This document shows, in pieces, positions 18,586-61,330 of a DNA stretch of 64,000 nt (position 1 is the first letter of the stretch; every line of letters starts with the position of its first letter). Origin of the DNA: Ancylostoma caninum (taxonomy: Eukaryota > Nematoda > Chromadorea > Rhabditida > Ancylostomatidae). The DNA lies in the NCBI GenBank assembly GCA_037903475.1, contig JBAJFG010000019.1, positions 310,001 through 374,000 of the forward strand, read 5' to 3'. The notes beneath the pieces were generated by a model. It worked only from the letters and a program-made list of their open reading frames with translations, ran no database searches and was not told the DNA's origin. The translations under genes and the position numbers were made by a program.

Positions 18586-18898
18586 TTCAAAATTGCACAT
18601 CGAGGGAGGTAGTAGAATGAGATGATGATTTGATAGAGTTTTGTTGAAATAAGGAAGCTGACTTCTCTCCTATACTCGGAGCAAACTTGCGGAGTGTAAT
18701 TTGTGGTAAATAATGGGTAGTAGGTATGGGCTGCACAGGAAACAAGAGAGAGTATTGTAATGCCACGAGCATTTCCTCGCCCAGTAGTGTGAGCACTGAG
18801 AGACCGCTAAGGTTATGAACTACTACTTTGTGAGGATTCACTTGTTGAAGTGACTGACATGCGAATTTTTCTGCCACGCGGGATCGTTTGGTCAGTAC
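18586..18898 (-). other. BEL-like 5' leader downstream of SL1
   Basis: Directly after the SL1 copy the minus strand shares an ordered set of words with the leader of the BEL element at 60 kb: GCGTGGCA, then GCAT(G)TCAGTCAC, then AAGTG. This makes it likely to be the leader of a second, decayed BEL-type element. The minus-strand frame 18587-18877 has no recognisable gag domain. Confidence 0.4.
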
Positions 18899-18920
18899 CT
18901 CAAACTTGGGTAATTAAACC
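18899..18920 (-). other. Exact copy of the nematode SL1 spliced-leader sequence
   Basis: The 22 bases on the minus strand equal SL1: GG followed by TTTAATTACCCAAGTTTGAG. The next two bases are GT, as in an SL RNA gene where the leader exon meets its donor, but the following sequence does not look like an SL1 RNA body with an Sm site. Upstream, a TATA-like GCGCGTATAAGGG lies about 165 nt away (about 19073-19085). A second near-copy sits in the same position of the BEL element at 60930-60951, so the motif appears to be part of an LTR or leader structure. Confidence 0.9.
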
Positions 18921-19250
18921 TATTATTATTAAAACAAATATAACAGTTTTTCGTAACACGAGAAAAGTTGAACGAAACAAAAAATAACGCGAGTAATACC
19001 TACATTTAAATGATTTAGGTTGACAAATCAAATGAAGCAAAAAACCAACCACGAGCCTCCAGCGACGCGAGATCCCTTATACGCGCAAAATGTTGCTTGT
19101 GACGCGCATTTCCTCGCCGCTATCAGCAAATCTTCCATGAGATTACATTGAGTTCAATCTACCAACATTACAACATACAGCTATCGATTAACATAATGAT
19201 TAACACGATCATATTTGATTACTCAATAATTCAACTATCACAAATGTACT
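18921..19250 (-). other. Putative LTR of a BEL-like element
   Basis: The stretch upstream of SL1 has the layout of a promoter region: possible start TGTGATAG near 19245, a TATA box near 19080 and AT-rich sequence to the SL1 motif. No second LTR is present, so boundaries are unproven; the comparison is with the region 60952-61330. Confidence 0.3.
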
Positions 19251-19352
19251 TAGTCGTCCTACGGCCCTCCCCCAGAGAGTGACTCATTCCTCGGAGCGTG
19301 CGTTGTTGTCTTTATCGCCGTCGGAACTTTCCCTCTGCAATCCTGCCAGCTC

Positions 19353-20696
19353 TTGCTTCGCCGCACTGATTCTCCTCAACGCAATATGCTTCTTGTCAGG
19401 AACGTTGCAAAGCGAGCGATGGTGTCCATGGTCGTTTGGAATAAGGTCGTCGAACGCGGTGCCTTTTACTCGGCTGCAATACCAGCACTGTCGATGCTTG
19501 TACTTGCAAGTGGACGAACTCGGGCAGAATTCGAGAGTGAAATAGCCACGTATGATGGTGACCACCTATTTGGACAATTTAGCGATATGGAAAATTGCAG
19601 TATCTCAAACAACCAATGTCAACTTGCACATGGTACTGTAATTTGGATGCTCCATTCAAACAATCCACCCCAGTGCAAAGTTCGTTGGAGCTATTGACAG
19701 TATTGCCTACGTCACGCCTCAGCACATGTTCCTCGAGGCTATGCATTCAGCTTTCACATACAAAAATATCCCTTTTCTGAATCAGCATCTATCAAAATGG
19801 TGTTTACCTGAAAACGCAATGCCGATGGATAACGGCCTGTTCATCACACTTCCGGAACTAGCTGATCAGGATCCCCGTGGAATTTTTCGAAATAATTTAA
19901 CCCTGGTACAACAGATTAATGAAAACCACTACAATATATCCAAACACATGCGTTTTTACGAGTCTGGTCACAAACATGCTGATGCAATTCGTAACCCACA
20001 TGCGGGATCGGGTAGCACTTTTCATTCATCTGACAATTCCTCTCTTCTTGCAATAATCCTCCATTCCCAAGATCCTTCTGTCACAAATGCAAAACCTCTT
20101 TGGTTATCCTCCTTAATCAGAGGAAAGCGTGATGTACAGAACTAAAAACTGATAAGGTTGCCTAACCAAACAAAAAGGAAACATCAAGGGCAGAATCACT
20201 CAAGATTTCAGCTGTAGTGGCTGAACATGTTGCGCTGAATTCTGTCTCAAACTTCTCCCAACTCACTGACGACTAGTGGCTGGGTCATGAAGGTTGTCAA
20301 GACCAGCGACATTATGAACTCAACAGTAAGTTACAATATCTCAAGTACAAACTTGATGAAGTTATTCAGCGCGACCTTACCGTTCTTTTCGAACGTATTT
20401 GCGTTCTCAATAATTTTGAAGTGCAAACCCAAATTCGACCCCCCACAAGTGCCGCTAGAATGTTGCTAAACAGGAATGACATTTATGCTATTTCTGCTGA
20501 CGATGTGCTAATGCTTTCTAGGTATAAAGTCGTCCAAGTCGACGGAGATATAACTAGATCACAAGGTAAATGGCGTCTGCTACATGGACACTCCAGTTCG
20601 TGTATGAAACCCACTTCTTTTTGTTCAACCAGGTACACGTGATCTCAAAACACGTAGCACAGTGGCTAATTGTGGACAACTAACATTAGATATCTA
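19353..20696 (+). pseudogene. Env-like glycoprotein remnant, 5' part
   Basis: The plus strand encodes, across several frames, a cysteine-bearing protein resembling envelope-like products of nematode LTR retroelements. Recognisable stretches are NCSISNNQCQLAHGTVIW, then PPQCK, a long middle with ADQDPRGIFRNN, and later a CYMDTPV-type stretch followed by QPGTRDLKTR. Frameshifts and stops break it repeatedly. A mariner inserted at the TA at 20695-20696; the frame picks up again at 26974. It is described only as a relic; the family assignment comes from general resemblance and is uncertain. It could also be another secreted, cysteine-rich gene. Confidence 0.35.
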
Positions 20697-52050: not shown

Positions 52051-52137
52051 AAGATCGAGTGGAGTGTGTTCTGTGCACGCCCGGCGAGCCGTCTACTTTC
52101 TCTCACTCGCCAAAGAAAATAATTGGTCCAGGGAACC

Positions 52138-52944
52138 ATGGAACAGCCGGACCAGCGTATGTTCCAACCTCGTTTAGATCAAATCCAAGTAGCCACTCTC
52201 AATGTAAGACGACTTTCAACTAGGGAGCGCTTAATGGAGCTACAAGAGTCATTACGAAGAACGCACGTGGACATTCTGGCACTAACGGAGCTTCGCTGGA
52301 AAGGTACCGGCTGCATGGATCTCGTCAACTCTGGCTATAGATTCTTCTACGCTGGACCCGAGAACACCACAGCACCGTCCGGAAGAGGATTTTTCGTGAG
52401 TAGCCGCTTTGCCCCTTATGTCGGTGCATCTGAACGAGAAAACGATCGTATATCACGTTTGGATCTTTGGATGGGCGAACATATCATTCGCTGTTTTTCA
52501 ATCTACGCACCGCCATCCTCATGCTTCGGTGCCGAAGATGAAGAACAATATAGCAAGTTTCTTGAAGAACTTTGTACTCTACTACAGCAGTCCAACCCTC
52601 ACAAAATATGCTTAAACAGAAGAAAGCAATGGTGCAATGGTGCTGGAGTTTCAAAAGGGCATATCCTTCTGCTGGGAGATTTCAATGCGAAACTGGGCAA
52701 AAAAGAAAACGAAGCGGAAATTTGTATAGGACAGTACGGTTACGGCGATGTCAGAAATGCTCGGGGACGACTACTCATTGAATTTTGCGAACAGCTTCAT
52801 CTACGAGCATCGGCAACATTCTTCAAGACACGCAGCGGACGAAAATGGACTTGGAAATCACCAGATGGGATCACACGCAACTGCATCGACCACATCTTCG
52901 CTTGTCCACATCTCCGATTCAGTAACGTACGAAAGGGTCACTAA
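52138..52944 (+). pseudogene. RTE-A apurinic-type endonuclease domain
   Basis: MEQPDQRMFQPRLDQIQVAT opens the frame, followed by the APE-like endonuclease motifs: TLNVR, LTELRWKG, SIYAPP, LLGDFNAKLG and WTWKSPDG..NCIDHIF. The closing S/T-DH-R motif (ETDHRLLRG) is present at 52950-52976 but in another frame, so a frameshift near 52940 breaks the protein. This enzyme nicks the target for reverse transcription. The neighbouring linker (53177-53440) has the K.LRR.IK.DIR.HH pattern of RTE elements. Confidence 0.85.
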
Positions 52945-53415
52945 ATTTCGAGACTGATCACCGCCTTCTCCGTGGAATGCTTAAGTGGCTCAAGTTTGAC
53001 ATTAAGGTTTGCAGAAAAACGCATTCGCGCCACTATTTGGACAGAGACATCTATAAAAATGTAATCTCATCCTTCTGTCCCAAATCGCTAAGCTGTACTA
53101 AGAATGGATACGAAAACCTTTGCAGACACATCAAAAACGCAGCAGAACTTGCCACACGTCCACGTAAGTCGCGTAATTGCCTGTCCAGCAAAACACTTGT
53201 GCACTTATAAAGCAGAGACAACAGATGAAGAAAACCATTTCAACTCCTCTCGACCAACTTGCATACACTGAAACATGTAAAATGCTTAGACGGCTGATAA
53301 AAGACGACATAAGGCTTCATCATTGTCGAGTTGTTGAAACGGCTGTGCAGTCCCGACAGAGCTTGAGGAGGATTAGATGCGAAACAGAAGTTGGACACCA
53401 CCAACTCTTCCAACT

Positions 53416-55426
53416 GATCACCTTGATCACCTTGACTCCCGTTGATCTTCGGGTATACCGAGCGGGCGCCAGCAATCCTTCCATTTGTCCCTCTCGCGAG
53501 CCAGAGTTGTCCAGTGGATTCTGTCCGTTCGAGGGACACGGAGAGCATCGTATCTATCCTTGAAGGACTTCGTGAAGAAGTCTGACCATCGGGTCGGTGG
53601 TCTTCCTGTCGTGCGCTTAACGTCCCGTGGAGTCCAGTCGCTGACGGCTCTTGTCCAACGGTTGTCGTTAAAACGCATCACGTGCCCGGCCCACCTAACC
53701 TTACTCAACTTGGCGTAAGCGGCAGCGTCCCTGATCTTCGATTGTTGACGGAGGGTGGAGCTCCGTATTCCAGCCCTCACTTGCGTGAGGCGGGTTATTC
53801 CTAGCATCACCCTCTCGATGGAGCGTTCGACGACGCTAACCGCATTCTCATCCTGCTTGCGCAACGCCCAGGTTTCTGAGGCGTAGGTCAAAGCAGGGAG
53901 AACGGTTGTGTTGAAGAGGTGGGCACGGAGCCTGGTGTTCTTCGTCTTCTTCACTACGTCCTCGATGCTCTTGTAAGCTCCCCAAGCCGCTCGTTTCCTC
54001 CTGCCCAGCTCTGGAGCGAGGTCGTTCATCATATTGACTTCCCGACCTAGGTATACGTAGCTGGAGCATTCGGATATGGTCGTTCCGTTGAGCGAGAATA
54101 GGGCATCCGGGACCCATCCGTTCTTCATGAACATCGTCTTCGTCAGATTCAGCTGGAGACCAACCTTTCCACACGCGTCCTCGAAGTCGGCCAGCATCTG
54201 TTCCGCTTCGCTGATGGTTGGTGTTATAAGAACGATGTCGTCAGCGAAGCGAAGATGACTAAGTCGCCGGCCATCAACTTGCACTCCCATGCTATCCCAT
54301 TCCAGTTTCCGCATGACGTCTTCAAGAGTGGTGCTGAATAGTTTTGGCGACACGGTATCGCCTTGCCGAACCCCTCTCTTGACGTCGATGATGATGTCGT
54401 CGTAGAATGGAGAAATCCTGGTCGTGAAGTTGCTGTAGAGCTCACGAAATACCTTGATGTATTGAGTAGGTATGCCCTTGTTGTCCAGGGCTTCCAACAC
54501 CGCTTCCGTCTCAACAGAGTCGAAGGCTTTCTTCAAATCGATGAAGTGAGACAGAGGGGCATCTTATACTCTCGCGATACTTCGATGAGTCTAGTGACGG
54601 TGTGTATGTGGTCGATCGTACTGAATCCTTTTCGAAACCCTGCTTGCTCGCACGGCTGTCCCTCGTCTAGCGTCCTTTCGATCCTATTGAGGATCACTCG
54701 CGTGAAAAGCTTGTAGACGACGGACAGTAGGCAGATGGGGCGATAATTGCCAATATCCTGCGGGTCTCCCTTCTTGTACAGCAACACGGTCCTGCTGGTC
54801 TTCCACTGGTTAGGTACCTTGCACTCCGACAGGTACCGCGTGAAAAGCCTAGCCAAGGTGGTAATGAGAATTGGCGGTAGGTTCTTCAGATGTTCCGGTC
54901 GAATCCTGTCGGGGCCCGGTGCTGTACGATTCTTCACCGACTTGATGGCATGTCGGATTTCGGAAGGGAGAACCGATGGGACAACATACCCGTCCTCCCT
55001 AAGGTGACATTGAGGGAGGTGGACGTGGCTATCGAAGAGATCCGAGTAGAAGTCGTAGATGACCTTCTCCATTGCCCGTCTTGATGAAGAAATTGTTCCG
55101 TCCGGGCGCCGGAGGGCGGACATCTTGGTCTTGCGATTGGCGAAGTCTCGGCGGGCGCAGCGAATGCTTTTCCCTGCCTCTGCGGCTTCAGCCAACACTG
55201 CTGCTCGTCTCTCCTTGAGGTCTTCTTTTATCGCTTCTCTGCACCGTTTTGCGAGCTCGGACGTTAGCTGGTAGTTGCCTGCGGCTCTCGCGGCTCCACG
55301 CTGGCGTATGAGCTCGAGGGTCTCGTAAGACAATCGTCTCTTGGTGACTCTCAAACCCTCAGCACTCTTCGCGCTGTCGCGGGATAGAAAAGGAGACATG
55401 TGTAGATCGAAAACTGAAATGAGCAA
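53416..55426 (-). mobile_element. RTE-B, 5'-truncated RTE retrotransposon
   Basis: Reads leftward from about 55426 (RT linker and fingers) to 53427 and ends with the short tandem tail TCAAGGTGATCAAGGTGATC at about 53416-53440, the tail type of nematode RTE elements. 5' truncation is typical of these elements. Motifs: APGPDRIRPEHL, GNYRPICLLSVVYKLF, QAGFRKGFSTIDH, then after a one-base deletion near 54545 KKAFDS, RGVRQGDTVSPKLF, LRFADDIVLI and the C-terminal GRPPTRW...HWTTLARERDKW. Apart from that single frameshift the RT is readable throughout, so the insertion is young relative to its host RTE-A. Confidence 0.88.
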
Positions 55427-56131
55427 ACTTGTAGAGCAATTCTACGAAGAATTATACACCTCTACGGTGGATGTAACACATATTCCATAACCTGCACAGG
55501 ATAATTGTCCCCCGTTTCTCGAATGTGAAATTGAGGCAGCTCTTGGAAGTATGAAGTAAGGAAGAACACCCGGCCATGACCAAATCACAACAGAAATGGT
55601 GAAATGGGGTGCCGAGATGCTAACTCCAGTGATAACGGAATTGTTCAATCAGTGCCTCTATACTATAGTGGTCAAGTTCCCGAAAAGATGGCTGATTCCA
55701 TAACGATCCTTCTTCATAAGAAAGGTGATCCGTCGGAACTGAAGAATTACCGACCAATTTCGCTGCTCTCAGTCCTGTACAAGCTTTCGACAAAAGTTAT
55801 CAATCAGCGAGTAGAAGGCATATTGGATTCAGAACAGCCACGAGAGCAAGCTGGTTTTCGAAGAAACTACTCTACTATCGACCATCTTCACGCCATCAAT
55901 GAACTGATGGAACGGTGCCGCGAATATCAAATCCCACTGTTCATGGCATTTGTCGATTATGAGAAGGCCTTCGATACAGTAGAGGTGAACCTGCTATGGA
56001 ACGTCTTGCAAGAACAAGGAGTGTACGCTCAGCTGATAGCTCTTTTGCGAGGAATATATGCGAGCTCCTGTACAATGGTCGAAATTGGCGACACAGCTAT
56101 ACCTATCAAGAATTGTCGAGGAGTCCGCGAG
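55410..56131 (+). pseudogene. RTE-A reverse transcriptase, N-terminal half
   Basis: Several frames carry RT motifs: FYEELYTST, PGHDQIT.EM, then LLHKKGDPSELKNYRPISLL, REQAGFRRNYSTIDHLHAIN and FMAFVDYEKAFDTV (palm motif A, F.DY.KAFD). Stops near 55490 and 55558 and a frameshift precede the long open part. The catalytic ADD box lies beyond the truncation at 56131. Confidence 0.8.
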
Positions 56132-58033: not shown

Positions 58034-58455
58034 AGGCAGCACTCACGGAAATTTTTGAGTTGAAGATTTCGCGATATATCGGGGTTTTTAGGGACGATGA
58101 ACTCATTGACAACGATGAAGTAGTGTGAAACACGCGAAAAACACAGAAAGTGATGGCGGTATTTTATGTGTGTCCACAGCGCGGACGAGTGTTCCGTGAT
58201 CGGTCCCGCCACGGGACCCTGCAAATGGTACGAATTTCATAAACAAGCGCGCGCTGAACCACATGCGCACACCTTGTCAACGGCGTTAGTTGGCGCGTCG
58301 GAACCCTAATGTCCAGAGCGGCAGATGTGTCCACGGCAGTATCTTCGCAGGTGGGCGGCCATTCAAGGTGTCCGACTTACTGTTGCGATTGTCCAGCGGC
58401 CAGCTACATGGTGGGCGACTCATTTCAGAAGTGAAAATTTCCGTGAGTGCTGCCT
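58034..58455. mobile_element. TTAA-flanked foldback MITE in BEL
   Basis: The 422-bp element has inverted ends AGGCAGCACTCACGGAAATT and is flanked by TTAA at 58030-58033 and 58456-58459. The BEL polyprotein frame lies on both sides. TTAA duplication is the piggyBac hallmark, though these tips lack the usual CCC start, so the superfamily is inferred from the target only. Confidence 0.75.
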
Positions 58456-58459
58456 TTAA

Positions 58460-59654
58460 AGTCGTCAAGTACTTGCGCGTTGATGTTTGCTTTCTCTTCC
58501 TTTTCCGGCCCTGTATATTCCTTTTCCGGCTCCTGAGACTCCATTTTCCAATGTATTTCCCACGAATCGAAGTCCTCGCTGGTTTCGATGGTGTGGACTA
58601 TCGAACACAGCTGTGTATCCGAGATACTGTCCCTCAGAATTCGCTGTCTTGATACCATGTATCCCAAACGTGTAGGTATTAGCATCAATCCTGAGAGAAG
58701 TATAAACTGTTCTGCTTCAAAGTTGATGAAGCTCCATAGTTGATCGCATCCAATTAGGATTTGAGGTGAATTAATGGTTCCCGTGCAATGAGTACTTATT
58801 CGTATCTGGTTGCGACGAATGAACTGCAGATCCTTGTCATCAAGCTTACCTTCAGAAAAATTTTTGGTGAGGTTATCCTGAGTGTAGAGACGTAGTTGAT
58901 GTTGAACTCCATCAGCGTCCCAGACGTTCAAAGAAGTGCTGATGCATTGGACTTTCATGGGCGTTTCTGCTCCGAACGTTCTGAGATTCATGGTGATCGA
59001 GCCATGATTTGGCAGTCCTAATTCCTTTGCAAGCTTTCCATCATTGAAAGAACGGTCCGTTCCAGTATCCAACAGTATTTGAAGGGTTAAAAGCTGCTGG
59101 GTGCGTGGGTGGAGTGCTTGCAATGTTCCCGTTAAGAGGAAAATTTCGCCGTTTCGTTTTCGGTGTGAATTGTCTTCCACGGCCATTACTGTGTGGTTTT
59201 CGTCCTCGTTAGTGAGTGTTTGTACTTCTTCACAGGAAGTGAAGTTCTGTCGTGTTTGTGCAGTTTTCTGTCGGTTCTCTCTGCTTTCATGCGAAACAGG
59301 GGGTGATGGTTTGTCAGTTCTCAACCGGAAGCACGTCAAAGAGTGATGCCTTTCTCCACAGTGTGTGCGTCCTTTTGCTTTGCACTCAGCATGAAGGTGG
59401 TTTTGTGAACCACAACCAATGCACCGACGAGATTTCTTCAGATGTTCCAACCGAGCACTGGGCGTAGTGATCTTGGTACATGCTGTTGAGCAATGCTCTT
59501 TATTGTCACAGTAGAAACAAAATGGGGATCGCTTCCTGACCTGGAAACTTGTTCCCTTCGGGCCTTGATGGCTCATGGGCTTCTGCTCTATCTTCCTTGG
59601 CACCTGCTGTTCAATTTCTACTTCCTGTTTCAATACAAAATCAAGCCTGATCAT
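58460..59654 (-). pseudogene. BEL/Pao zinc-knuckle and aspartic protease region
   Basis: A 400-codon open stretch with cysteine knuckles (CFYCDNKEHCSTAC; CIGCGSQNHLHAEC) followed by the BEL-type retropepsin (LLDTGTDRSF, with LPNHGSITMNLRTFGAETP and a RISTHCTG..IL(I)GCDQLW stretch). It joins the gag upstream by a frame change near 59650 and is cut by the TTAA MITE downstream. In the active element these would process and package the polyprotein. Confidence 0.8.
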
Positions 59655-60573
59655 GAGTTTTTTGAGTGTCCAACTATTCGTCGGGGGTAAATATACCTTT
59701 CCCTAAGGATTCTTCTTTGGATTGTCTCCGTGAATTTGGAGTGAATTCTCGAGAGGAGCCAAGGGCTATCAAGAGATTCACCTTTATTTTCAAGTTGGGT
59801 GGTGATAATGGAAAGTTGATCAAACAACTTCCTTTGATCCCTGAGTGCAGGGCTTCTGGCGCTCCATTGCTTCAGTTGTTTATGCAAGCTTGTTACAATG
59901 GTCTGTACATTGCCACATTTCTCTTGCAGATGAGAGATTGCGAGAGAGTAGTTAGAAGAGGTGACTTGAAACCGGGCAACGGATTCACAGGTCTCGCCCT
60001 TTAATGCTCTTAGGAGATAGTTAAATTTCTGCAAATCTGATATTGGCAACGAATGCAGAGTCGCATTGAAGAGCTCCCAAAAATTGCCCCACTGCTATGT
60101 TTCACCGCTGAATTCGGGTATGGGTATCTTCGGAAGTTCGACTCGTGTCATGAGGTTCCCGCTGGCAACATTCTCGGGCACTGTTTCTGCTACTTGAGAG
60201 TATGCCCGGCTATGAAATGAGAGGGAATGCCTGTTAATCTCCAATTTTGTGAGGAGAGTTTCAGTTTCTGAAATAATTTCTTAGGCTTCATTGAGGTATT
60301 CACATATTTTCTTCTCTTCCTCTTCTGTGAGAGGATTTTCTCTACGGCCTCTGTAAAAGCATGAAGAGCCATCTCAAATTCGAATCAGAACAACGTTTGA
60401 GTAGTTCTGATTCGAATTTGAGCTTTCTGCATTTGACTAAGCAATTCACCGCTTGGTATTTGGTCACTGGGCCCGGCATCATTTCCCAAATGCGCATACT
60501 AGTCTACGAGTTGCGACAATGTGTTAATATGTTGCGTTAAAACTCCTTTTCTAGTTTTCAGTGATGTCGCCAT
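59651..60573 (-). pseudogene. BEL/Pao gag (DUF1759-type)
   Basis: The ATG at 60573 starts MATSLKTRKGVLTQHINTLS; two in-frame stops interrupt the next 70 codons. Then come the ..FTEAVEKIL and EINRHSL-type helices and the diagnostic DLQKFNYLLRALKGE (60050) with RFQVTSSNY, AISHLQEKCGN and LHKQLKQW. These are the hallmarks of BEL gag. Reading continues into the zinc-knuckle region after a frame shift. The element has about 3.3 kb left of a typical 6-7 kb. Confidence 0.8.
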
Positions 60574-60681: not shown

Positions 60682-60929
60682 GTAAGTGTAGGAATAGGTT
60701 AGTGAACTCGGAAGTCGTGAATTTCACTATACCGTCCCAGATGCACGCAATACAGAATGTAATATGCCCAATAAGAAGCACTCAGCATGCACTGCAAGGC
60801 TGTCAGAAGTGCCCACCTGTTTCCCTGCGATTCGATCCTTGTGCGGCTTGAATTCGTATTGCCGATGCTGATACCACTTGATCGGGTGACTGATGCTATT
60901 GCTTGCCACGCGATTGCAGATGTCGCGAC

Positions 60930-60951
60930 CTCACACTTGGGTAATTAAACT
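60930..60951 (-). other. SL1-like sequence in BEL LTR/leader (20 of 22 bases)
   Basis: Minus strand GTTTAATTACCCAAGTGTGA, preceded by A instead of G and with one internal change from SL1, followed by G then GT. AATAAA overlaps its 5' edge and a TATATAAG box lies about 130 nt upstream (about 61077-61084). Position relative to TATA box and leader matches the exact copy at 18899. Confidence 0.85.
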
Positions 60952-61330
60952 TTATTCATTCCACAAAAACGAAAGAATTAATGCACCATAAATGCCCCAT
61001 GAATGCACCAAGAATTTAAACACAGAAAAAAGATGGAAAAAAAATTACAACATAACTTCAAGTCGAATATGCGTTTCTTATATACTGCGCAATTGTTGTC
61101 TATTATGTAATCTCCGATAAATCTAACACAGTGAACTAAAACAAACTATGTTAAACATTAAACAAATTATGCTGAACATATGCGTATCACAGCAATCTAG
61201 CTACATAAACAACAAAGTAGCATAACACAAATAGAAACAATAGAAGCAATACAGTAATAGTAATACAGTAATACATGAATACAAAAATAATATAAACAAT
61301 ACAACAAAACTATTGCGCCTAATCCGTCAA
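60952..61330 (-). repeat. Putative 5' LTR of the BEL element
   Basis: AT-rich segment with TATATAAG near 61080 and AATAAA at 60951-60956 in proper order. The outer boundary is not determined and the 3' LTR is outside or lost. Confidence 0.4.

What the first reader, a model, noticed from the sequence alone, without database searches (positions are those of the whole stretch)
18899..18920. SL1 spliced-leader sequence built into LTR-element leaders
An exact 22-base SL1 is present on the minus strand at 18899-18920, followed by GT. The BEL element has a 20/22 match at 60930-60951, also followed by GT, at the same place: 130-165 nt downstream of a TATA box and upstream of homologous leader words (GCGTGGCA, CAGTCAC, AAGTG). 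A 22-base match by chance is negligible and two in equivalent positions argue for function. In nematode SL RNA genes the leader sequence itself contributes to promoter activity, and the leader is followed by a donor GT. A retroelement carrying it could (a) use it as promoter, (b) splice it in cis onto its own mRNA so the transcript looks SL1-trans-spliced, or (c) donate it. I do not know of this as a standard feature of BEL elements.
Basis: partly seen in the sequence, partly recalled or inferred. Interest (0 to 1): 0.9.

Follow-up and report, generated by a model that had tools for sequence, protein, structure and literature searches.

The report
Spliced leader inside BEL retroelement LTRs
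Some virus-like jumping genes in a hookworm-like genome carry the worm's 22-base spliced leader inside their terminal repeats, usually right behind a poly(A) signal, which suggests, without yet proving, that they use the host's leader as the repeat they need for copying themselves.

Summary
SL1 is exact at 18899-18920(-) and 20/22 at 60930-60951(-). Both lie in LTRs of BEL/Pao elements: the first in a truncated element's 3' LTR, the second in a 5' LTR whose sister pair has exact SL1. The genome has 388 exact SL1 copies, reversed control 0. Among 138 listed sites, 15 same-strand and 0 opposite-strand pairs lie 6-14 kb apart; 14 of the 15 have a BEL gag hit just inside.

In 11 families with independent LTR evidence SL1 lies between U3 and U5; AATAAA begins 6-8 nt before it in 4 and a variant hexamer in 4 more. 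A U5 word complementary to the tRNA-Gly(GCC) anticodon arm usually follows. SL1 was seen upstream of 4 of 19 sampled gag loci.

Best reading: SL1 is the R repeat. The genomic RNA begins with SL1, probably by trans-splicing, and is polyadenylated at SL1's end, so SL1 carries first-strand transfer. This is inferred: no RNA data, and no canonical 3' splice site beside SL1. SL1 near Pao elements is published for Brugia (PMC7181701, passages); my paper searches showed no report of this architecture.

The parts
18899..18920 (-). Exact SL1 (22 nt) in LTR A; proposed R segment
   Evidence: copies
18846..19266 (-). LTR A: 3' LTR of a truncated BEL element; 346 nt precede SL1 and U5 is 53 nt; the LTR start is approximate
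   Evidence: homologous copies end at 18846; start by comparison with L014/L016
19267..19536 (-). Remnant of element A internal 3' end, with polypurine-like ctgggggag next to the LTR
   Evidence: 82% identity to L014 over 19536-18842
19076..19081 (-). TATA-like word TATAAG, 161 nt upstream of SL1
18873..18881 (-). CCGCGTGGC in U5, complementary to the tRNA-Gly(GCC) anticodon arm
60930..60951 (-). Decayed SL1 (20/22) in LTR B; exact in sister LTRs L110/L111
60952..60961 (-). Poly(A)-signal-like sequence abutting the SL1 copy (AATAAA abuts exact SL1 in sister L110)
61077..61084 (-). TATA box TATATAAG of LTR B
60879..60929 (-). U5 of LTR B (51 nt), with TCGCGTGGC at 60913-60905
   Evidence: sister 3' LTR L111 leaves the match at the same place
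60859..60876 (-). Primer-binding site of B, degenerate; TGGTGCATCGGC (tRNA-Gly) in sister L110
59651..60094 (-). BEL gag fragment (DUF1759)
   Evidence: E 1.2e-20
58425..59702 (-). BEL protease fragment (DUF1758)

Best explanation
In a subset of nematode BEL/Pao families the host spliced leader SL1 is a built-in LTR segment lying exactly between U3 and U5, and it serves as the R repeat. Transcription from a U3 promoter gives an RNA whose first 100-150 nt act as an outron; trans-splicing replaces this by SL1 joined to U5. The RNA 3' end forms at SL1 in the 3' LTR, directed by the abutting AATAAA-type hexamer. The RNA thus has SL1 at both ends. tRNA-Gly primes minus strong-stop DNA through U5 and SL1, and the SL1 complement anneals to SL1 at the RNA 3' end for first-strand transfer, so SL1 is rewritten from host SL RNA each round. 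Shown: SL1 in both LTRs, its position, the abutting hexamer in most families, the tRNA-Gly primer site and U5 complementarity, absence from some BEL families. Inferred: RNA 5' end at SL1, trans-splicing, cleavage at SL1, strand transfer on SL1. Direct initiation at SL1 would give the same R and is kept as a rival.
For: LTR membership: 15 same-strand and 0 opposite-strand exact-SL1 pairs at 6-14 kb among 138 listed sites; 14 of 15 have a PF03564 gag hit 597-1373 bp inside the 5' copy; L040/L039 LTRs are 410/410 identical with a GATGT target duplication and PBS TGGTGCATCGGCC. Position: in 11 families with independent LTR evidence AATAAA begins 6-8 nt before SL1 in 4 and any of 11 poly(A)-type hexamers in 8; P 4e-9 and 4e-12 against their own upstream background. 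With 13 unassigned SL1 flanks added: 6 and 11 of 24, P 1e-11 and 1e-13. At 24 SL1 sites taken as non-LTR: 0 AATAAA, 1 variant. A 22-nt R with the hexamer abutting puts cleavage near SL1's end, as R = SL1 requires. Genome-wide 26 exact AATAAA(N0-2)SL1 sites, reversed control 0. Leader-length contrast: in 8 of 14 families a TATA-like word lies 105-192 nt upstream of SL1, whereas in the two SL1-less families where both are seen TATA lies 40 and 47 nt before AATAAA. All-or-none: best SL1 match upstream of 19 sampled gag loci is 0-1 mismatch in 4 and at least 8 in 15. Conservation: LTRs 78% (window A vs L013/L014) and 83% (L098 vs L048) identical share 22/22 SL1. Leader-specific: 15 SL2-pattern sites, none in same-strand pairs at 6-14 kb (their flanks were not fetched).
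Against: No RNA data. No canonical TTTCAG acceptor at SL1|U5; only SL1's own TTTGAG, a weak 3' splice site. F3 has TTTTCAG 91 nt upstream of SL1 instead. AG is not specifically depleted upstream (AG 41, GA 43 over 1600 nt). In 3 of the 11 families (F3, F7, F10) no hexamer abuts SL1, and of the 38 sites chosen by their U5 word only 5 also stand in the strict AATAAA list. T-richness before SL1 (38-54% T in 15 of 16 rows, 20% in F6) exceeds that of the more distal U3 by 0.08 or more in 10 of 16 rows only. Six of 14 families show no distal TATA-like word, F2 has further ones at 37-58 nt and F9 one at 217 nt; such words are near chance frequency in AT-rich DNA. GT follows SL1 in 33 of 38 sites, which trans-splicing does not predict and a donor or SL-RNA origin would. 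Most families were found by exact SL1, so exactness among them is partly ascertainment; one F1 copy (L037) has only the 3' part of SL1 (7 mismatches). U5 is also conserved, so slow change in SL1 need not mean re-templating. SL1 cDNA tends to self-prime (PMC9984361, passages), which would hinder transfer.
Confidence: 0.42

Rival explanations
1. Encoded leader: transcription starts at SL1's first G (SL1 acting as initiator, as in SL RNA genes), so the RNA begins with SL1 without trans-splicing; R is still SL1.
For: Same R geometry and abutting hexamer; SL1 identity across diverged LTRs; T-rich upstream DNA in most families; no need for an acceptor. The initiator role of SL1 in SL RNA genes is recalled, not from a call.
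Against: No clear SL-RNA-gene-like block upstream except a weak match in F4 (weak test); TATA-like words, where seen, lie 105-192 nt upstream, too far; an AATAAA-type hexamer, not a TATA box at about -30, abuts.
Confidence: 0.2
2. Splice donor: SL1|GT is a cis (or trans) donor making subgenomic mRNAs whose leader resembles a trans-spliced mRNA.
For: GT follows SL1 in 33 of 38 sites with the U5 motif, often GTA.
Against: Some families or copies have GA, CT, GC or TT; no TTTCAG between SL1 and the gag start in 4 of 4 sampled elements. Env acceptors were not examined. Does not explain the abutting hexamer.
Confidence: 0.15
3. Passive relic, as proposed for Brugia: SL1 was trans-spliced onto expressed Pao RNA and integrated with it, with no function since.
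For: PMC7181701 passages; retrocopy-like SL1 sites also occur here (L004, L041/L064/L089).
Against: SL1 lies inside both LTRs at one site, mostly abutting a poly(A) hexamer, and is 22/22 between LTRs that differ by 17-22%.
Confidence: 0.12
4. Ordinary long R: the RNA starts about 100-150 nt upstream and is polyadenylated near SL1; SL1 is kept for another reason, such as protein binding or a mark of self.
For: TATA-like words at 105-192 nt in 8 of 14 families; hexamer at SL1.
Against: Gives no reason for SL1 identity or for the hexamer abutting its first base.
Confidence: 0.11

Closest known systems
SL1 near PAO LTR retrotransposons in Brugia malayi (Foster et al. 2020, PMC7181701; passages read)
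   Same: 60 of 120 non-array SL1 within 1 kb of Pao elements, occasionally flanking both ends on one strand
   Different: The passages describe them as flanking and as integrated trans-spliced leaders; LTR-internal position, abutting poly(A) hexamer, tRNA-Gly features and an R role are not in the passages read; supplements were not open to me
Belpaoviridae / BEL-Pao elements (ICTV profile PMC8742986, whole text; PMC3118150 passages)
   Same: LTR size, tRNA-Gly primer site; gag DUF1759 and protease DUF1758
   Different: No spliced leader in the profile; 0 occurrences of spliced leader in PMC3118150
C. elegans Cer1 (Ty3/gypsy; PMC3315495 passages)
   Same: A nematode LTR element whose spliced mRNA receives SL1 in trans
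   Different: Its 8-kb mRNA was not trans-spliced at that site; no SL1 in the LTR in the passages
Atlas virus and other A. ceylanicum belpaoviruses (PMC9094657 passages)
   Same: Hookworm BEL elements, one with identical LTRs
   Different: 0 occurrences of SL1 or spliced leader in the main text
Short-R retroviruses with the poly(A) signal at the U3/R border (RSV, MMTV; recalled, from no call)
   Same: R of about 15-21 nt right after AATAAA
   Different: R is not a host sequence

Membership tests
Belpaoviridae (BEL/Pao) | LTRs of 0.2-1.2 kb with target duplication | tested here: met
   4 pairs with both LTR ends seen, 371 to 554 bp; GATGT for L040/L039, CCAAC for L016/L014; 3 other pairs partial. 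The window copies themselves are incomplete
Belpaoviridae (BEL/Pao) | PBS complementary to tRNA-Gly or tRNA-Arg | tested here: met
   TGGTGCATCGGC in relatives; matches the 3' end of the tRNA-Gly(gcc) of L067. The window B PBS is degenerate; A has none, being a 3' LTR
Belpaoviridae (BEL/Pao) | BEL gag and protease domains | tested here: met
   DUF1759 and DUF1758 for B; gag hits for 14 of 15 SL1 pairs; A has none in the window
Belpaoviridae (BEL/Pao) | Reverse transcriptase | tested here: inconclusive
   RVT_1 E 0.034 in a 112-aa fragment, below the cut-off
SL1 RNA gene | SL1 RNA covariance model over cut-off | tested here: not met
   none in the window; none of 20 loci (best 27.9 bits). The array genes score 42-49 bits, also under the cut-off of 75, so the cut-off is strict here
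SL1 RNA gene | snRNA-type upstream promoter element | tested here: inconclusive
   best block shared by two SL1 gene types is 13 of 20; 13 of 14 LTR families no better than shuffles, F4 better than 190 of 200
Trans-spliced retrocopy (Foster reading) | SL1 at the start of the inserted copy with unrelated 5' flanks | tested here: not met
   LTR families of more than one fetched copy share the 5' flank (U3), except F6 (L084/L085), whose U3s hold other insertions
Short-R retroelement with R = SL1 | RNA 5' end at SL1 and 3' end at SL1 | not testable with these tools
   no RNA reads available

The most novel reading that the evidence does not exclude
A lineage of retroelements does not carry its own terminal redundancy in its primary transcript but borrows it: the host's trans-spliced leader supplies the 5' R, matching an SL1 copy kept in the 3' LTR, so each new provirus has 22 bp re-templated from host SL RNA and replication depends on host trans-splicing.
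Probability: 0.33. Interest if true: 0.92.

Novelty: new variant of a known kind. Interest (0 to 1): 0.73.

Why it matters
Trans-splicing removes the transcript's 5' end, which should block an LTR element that needs a repeated R. An LTR with the host leader as R would solve this, tie an endogenous virus group to a nematode RNA pathway, and explain part of the SL1 copies scattered outside SL gene arrays. It also warns that SL1-trimming RNA-seq pipelines may miscall LTR reads as trans-spliced.

Tried and rejected
SL1-U5 hairpin mimicking SL RNA stem I: folding energies of 15 LTR rows within -1.9 to +1.8 SD of U5 shuffles; the two true SL RNA rows gave -1.8 and -1.1, so the test is insensitive. 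Not used.

SL RNA-type promoter element upstream: no clear match except a weak one in F4, weak test.

U3 swap between families with a break at SL1 (L084/L085): rejected, since a palindromic insertion and other repeats in the U3s explain the lack of alignment. L084/L085 (C81) stays among the 15 pairs but was not confirmed as one element.

TTTGAG duplication as a sign of splicing to the inner AG of SL1: exact at only 2 loci, whose LTRs are 413/413 identical, and in each case the other LTR lacks it; not usable.

AG exclusion upstream of SL1: not seen.

SL2 in LTRs: none seen in LTR-like pairs. Under the model SL2-tagged RNA could not pair with an SL1 R, so this does not test trans-splicing.

SL1 in IMG/VR viral contigs: 0.

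Papers: searches gave no title or abstract on SL1 as an LTR segment or R. I opened 8 papers; among these only PMC7181701 links SL1 with Pao elements. The library is open-access only.

Rows and mends: my first family table (14 families, AATAAA 6, any hexamer 10, P 3e-14 and 8e-16) included F12, F13 and F14, whose LTR nature is unproven, F14 having been grouped partly for its hexamer; one search repeats it with 11 families that have independent LTR evidence (pair, gag, PBS or U5 word) and with all unassigned flanks, and those numbers are used. still covers all 14. F1/F2 and F5/F6 share U5 similarity, so strict independence is lower than 11. In the non-LTR control only L008 stands for its cluster. 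One search used 138 of 388 sites (100 listed, 17 more, 21 more) and is enriched for LTR types; of its 15 pairs 6 lie within the list alone. In other distance bins same/opposite were 8/14 (0.1-1.5 kb), 5/0 (1.5-6 kb) and 3/5 (14-60 kb). The confidence was lowered from 0.45 to 0.42 and the novel case from 0.35 to 0.33 after these mends.

Full report
OBSERVATION. SL1 is exact at 18899-18920 on the minus strand and 20/22 at 60930-60951 on the minus strand; shuffles give none. The genome (348 Mb, 638 contigs) has 388 exact copies and none of the reversed word. The ORF at 58425-59702 has an Ancylostoma caninum relative at 95% identity over 27% of the query, so I infer an Ancylostoma-like hookworm host.

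WHAT CARRIES SL1. The loci that best match the SL1 RNA model are arrays of about 1056 bp on C299, C316, C506 and C210 and an array of about 328 bp on C638, all below Rfam's cut-off. The window copies are not among them. Other classes outside LTRs: retrocopy-like sites (L004, L041/L064/L089), a palindromic repeat with up to four SL1 copies (L008 and others), and a microsatellite-associated repeat (L043, L051 and others).

A IN THE WINDOW. Copies of the region match to 18846, where another repeat begins. L014 continues the match upstream to 19536. A is therefore a 3' LTR with a short internal remnant, not a leader. Of 11 fetched F1 loci that reach U5, ten carry SL1 with 0, 1, 1, 1, 0, 0, 2, 1, 0 and 1 mismatches, the window included; the eleventh, L037, keeps only the 3' part (7 mismatches).

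B IN THE WINDOW. Gag DUF1759 and protease DUF1758 lie downstream. The sister pair L110/L111, 10 kb apart on C242, has exact SL1 with abutting AATAAA, and L110 a tRNA-Gly PBS. The other homologues have 1 mismatch (L112) and 4 (L114, and L113/L115, one place).

SL1 IS PART OF THE LTR. Among 138 listed exact sites, 15 same-strand and 0 opposite-strand pairs are 6-14 kb apart, and 14 of 15 have a listed gag hit 597-1373 bp inside the 5' SL1 (the exception is C198). L040/L039 shows the anatomy: a 410-bp LTR, 410/410 identical, GATGT duplication, SL1 at LTR positions 315-336, U5 of 74 nt, then the PBS.

ARCHITECTURE. In 11 families with independent LTR evidence AATAAA begins 6-8 nt before SL1 in 4 (F1, F6, F8, F11) and another listed hexamer in 4 (F2, F4, F5, F9); F3, F7 and F10 have none; P 4e-9 and 4e-12 against their own upstream background, families taken as independent. 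With 13 further unassigned flanks the counts are 6 and 11 of 24. 26 exact AATAAA(N0-2)SL1 sites exist genome-wide. In 38 exact sites SL1 is followed within 6-36 nt by CGCGTGGC; only 5 of these 38 also stand in the strict AATAAA list, because F4, F5, F2 and F9 use variants and others have none. CCGCGTGGC stands within 80 nt of SL1 at 0-1 mismatch in ten of the 11 families and further downstream in F8. It is complementary to the anticodon arm of tRNA-Gly(GCC), the tRNA whose 3' end matches the PBS; a full antisense tRNA-Gly next to SL1 in L067 shows both words in one molecule. The word also occurs in an SL1-less U5 (L116), so it belongs to BEL elements rather than to SL1. A second primer contact in U5 is my inference.

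LEADER. A TATA-like word lies 105-192 nt upstream of SL1 in 8 of 14 families; six have none there, F2 has others at 37-58 nt, F9 one at 217 nt. The 100 nt before SL1 hold 38-54% T in 15 of 16 rows and 20% in F6; this is at least 0.08 above the more distal U3 in 10 of 16 rows.

NOT ALL BEL ELEMENTS. In a systematic sample of 19 of 150 scored gag hits, 4 have SL1 at 0-1 mismatch upstream and 15 have nothing nearer than 8 mismatches. Only 7 of the 15 show a PBS within the 1.5-kb stretch; L126 and L127 end too near it, leaving 5 loci (L116, L123, L130, L131, L134; L130 and L134 alike) that clearly lack SL1. In the two where both are seen, TATA lies 40 and 47 nt before AATAAA, an ordinary short R.

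MECHANISM. R must be present at both RNA ends. If trans-splicing removes the RNA's 5' end, the only sequence that can serve is SL1 itself, and then the 3' LTR must contain SL1 ahead of the cleavage site, with the poly(A) hexamer as close as possible to SL1's first base. That is what most families show. Because both LTRs are copied from one RNA, an ordinary R may drift freely; identity to host SL1 in LTRs that differ by 17-22% needs either rewriting from host SL RNA or selection on SL1 itself. The weak points are the lack of a canonical acceptor at SL1|U5, the frequent GT after SL1, three families without an abutting hexamer, and the absence of RNA data. Direct initiation at SL1 would give the same R.

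PRIOR WORK. PMC7181701 (passages) reports, in Brugia, 60 of 120 non-array SL1 within 1 kb of PAO elements, occasionally flanking both ends on the same strand, and infers integration of trans-spliced leaders. Cer1 spliced mRNA is found with and without SL1 while its 8-kb mRNA is not trans-spliced there (PMC3315495, passages). SL1 cDNA self-primes (PMC9984361, abstract and passages), which may explain an inverted SL1 remnant at L113. PMC9094657, PMC3156134, PMC7652881 and PMC3118150 were seen in passages, PMC8742986 in full. Searches showed no description of SL1 as an LTR segment or R.

VERDICT. The feature is real and systematic: a host spliced leader fixed inside LTRs of several BEL families. 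The association is known in outline from Brugia; the LTR position and architecture appear undescribed in what I could search. The R mechanism is the best-supported reading but is unproven.

Noticed in passing
L067:589-694 (C42; identical stretch in L094, C113): SL1, 10 nt, then a complete antisense tRNA-Gly(GCC) including the CCA complement, then CTC and A9: looks like a reverse-transcription by-product or chimeric retrocopy. The two loci are 1201/1201 identical, perhaps one locus assembled twice.
   Followed up: partly
C4:410053 and C150:405471: SL1 followed by an extra TTTGAG in one LTR of each element only; these two LTRs are 413/413 identical.
   Followed up: partly
L008, L047, L056, L066, L068, L077, L095: GCAATGCATTGC-rich repeat, palindromic where both halves were fetched, carrying one to four SL1 copies about 215 bp apart, each followed by GTACT; not SL1 RNA genes by Rfam cut-off where tested (L008, L047).
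   Followed up: partly
L043, L051, L053, L070, L090: Repeat with SL1 between CCGCGGCTGTCAC[C/T] and a GTACCTACATACACG microsatellite-like stretch, seven copies fetched.
   Followed up: no
L041/L062/L064/L089, L042/L079, L060/L063/L073, L004: SL1 joined to shared 3' sequence with unrelated 5' flanks (L004 is single): likely retrocopies of trans-spliced RNAs; L004 reads by eye like an ATP synthase epsilon subunit.
   Followed up: partly
window 19254-20642(+): ORFs on the strand opposite to LTR A, at its edge, that by eye resemble a BEL env; no significant Pfam match.
   Followed up: no
L113 (C6:566108-566334): Inverted, partial SL1 repeat at the U3/U5 border of a B-family LTR, like a self-primed fold-back cDNA.
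   Followed up: no
window 52123-55441: Non-LTR retrotransposon pieces (endonuclease-like on +, reverse-transcriptase-like on -), by eye from translations.
   Followed up: no
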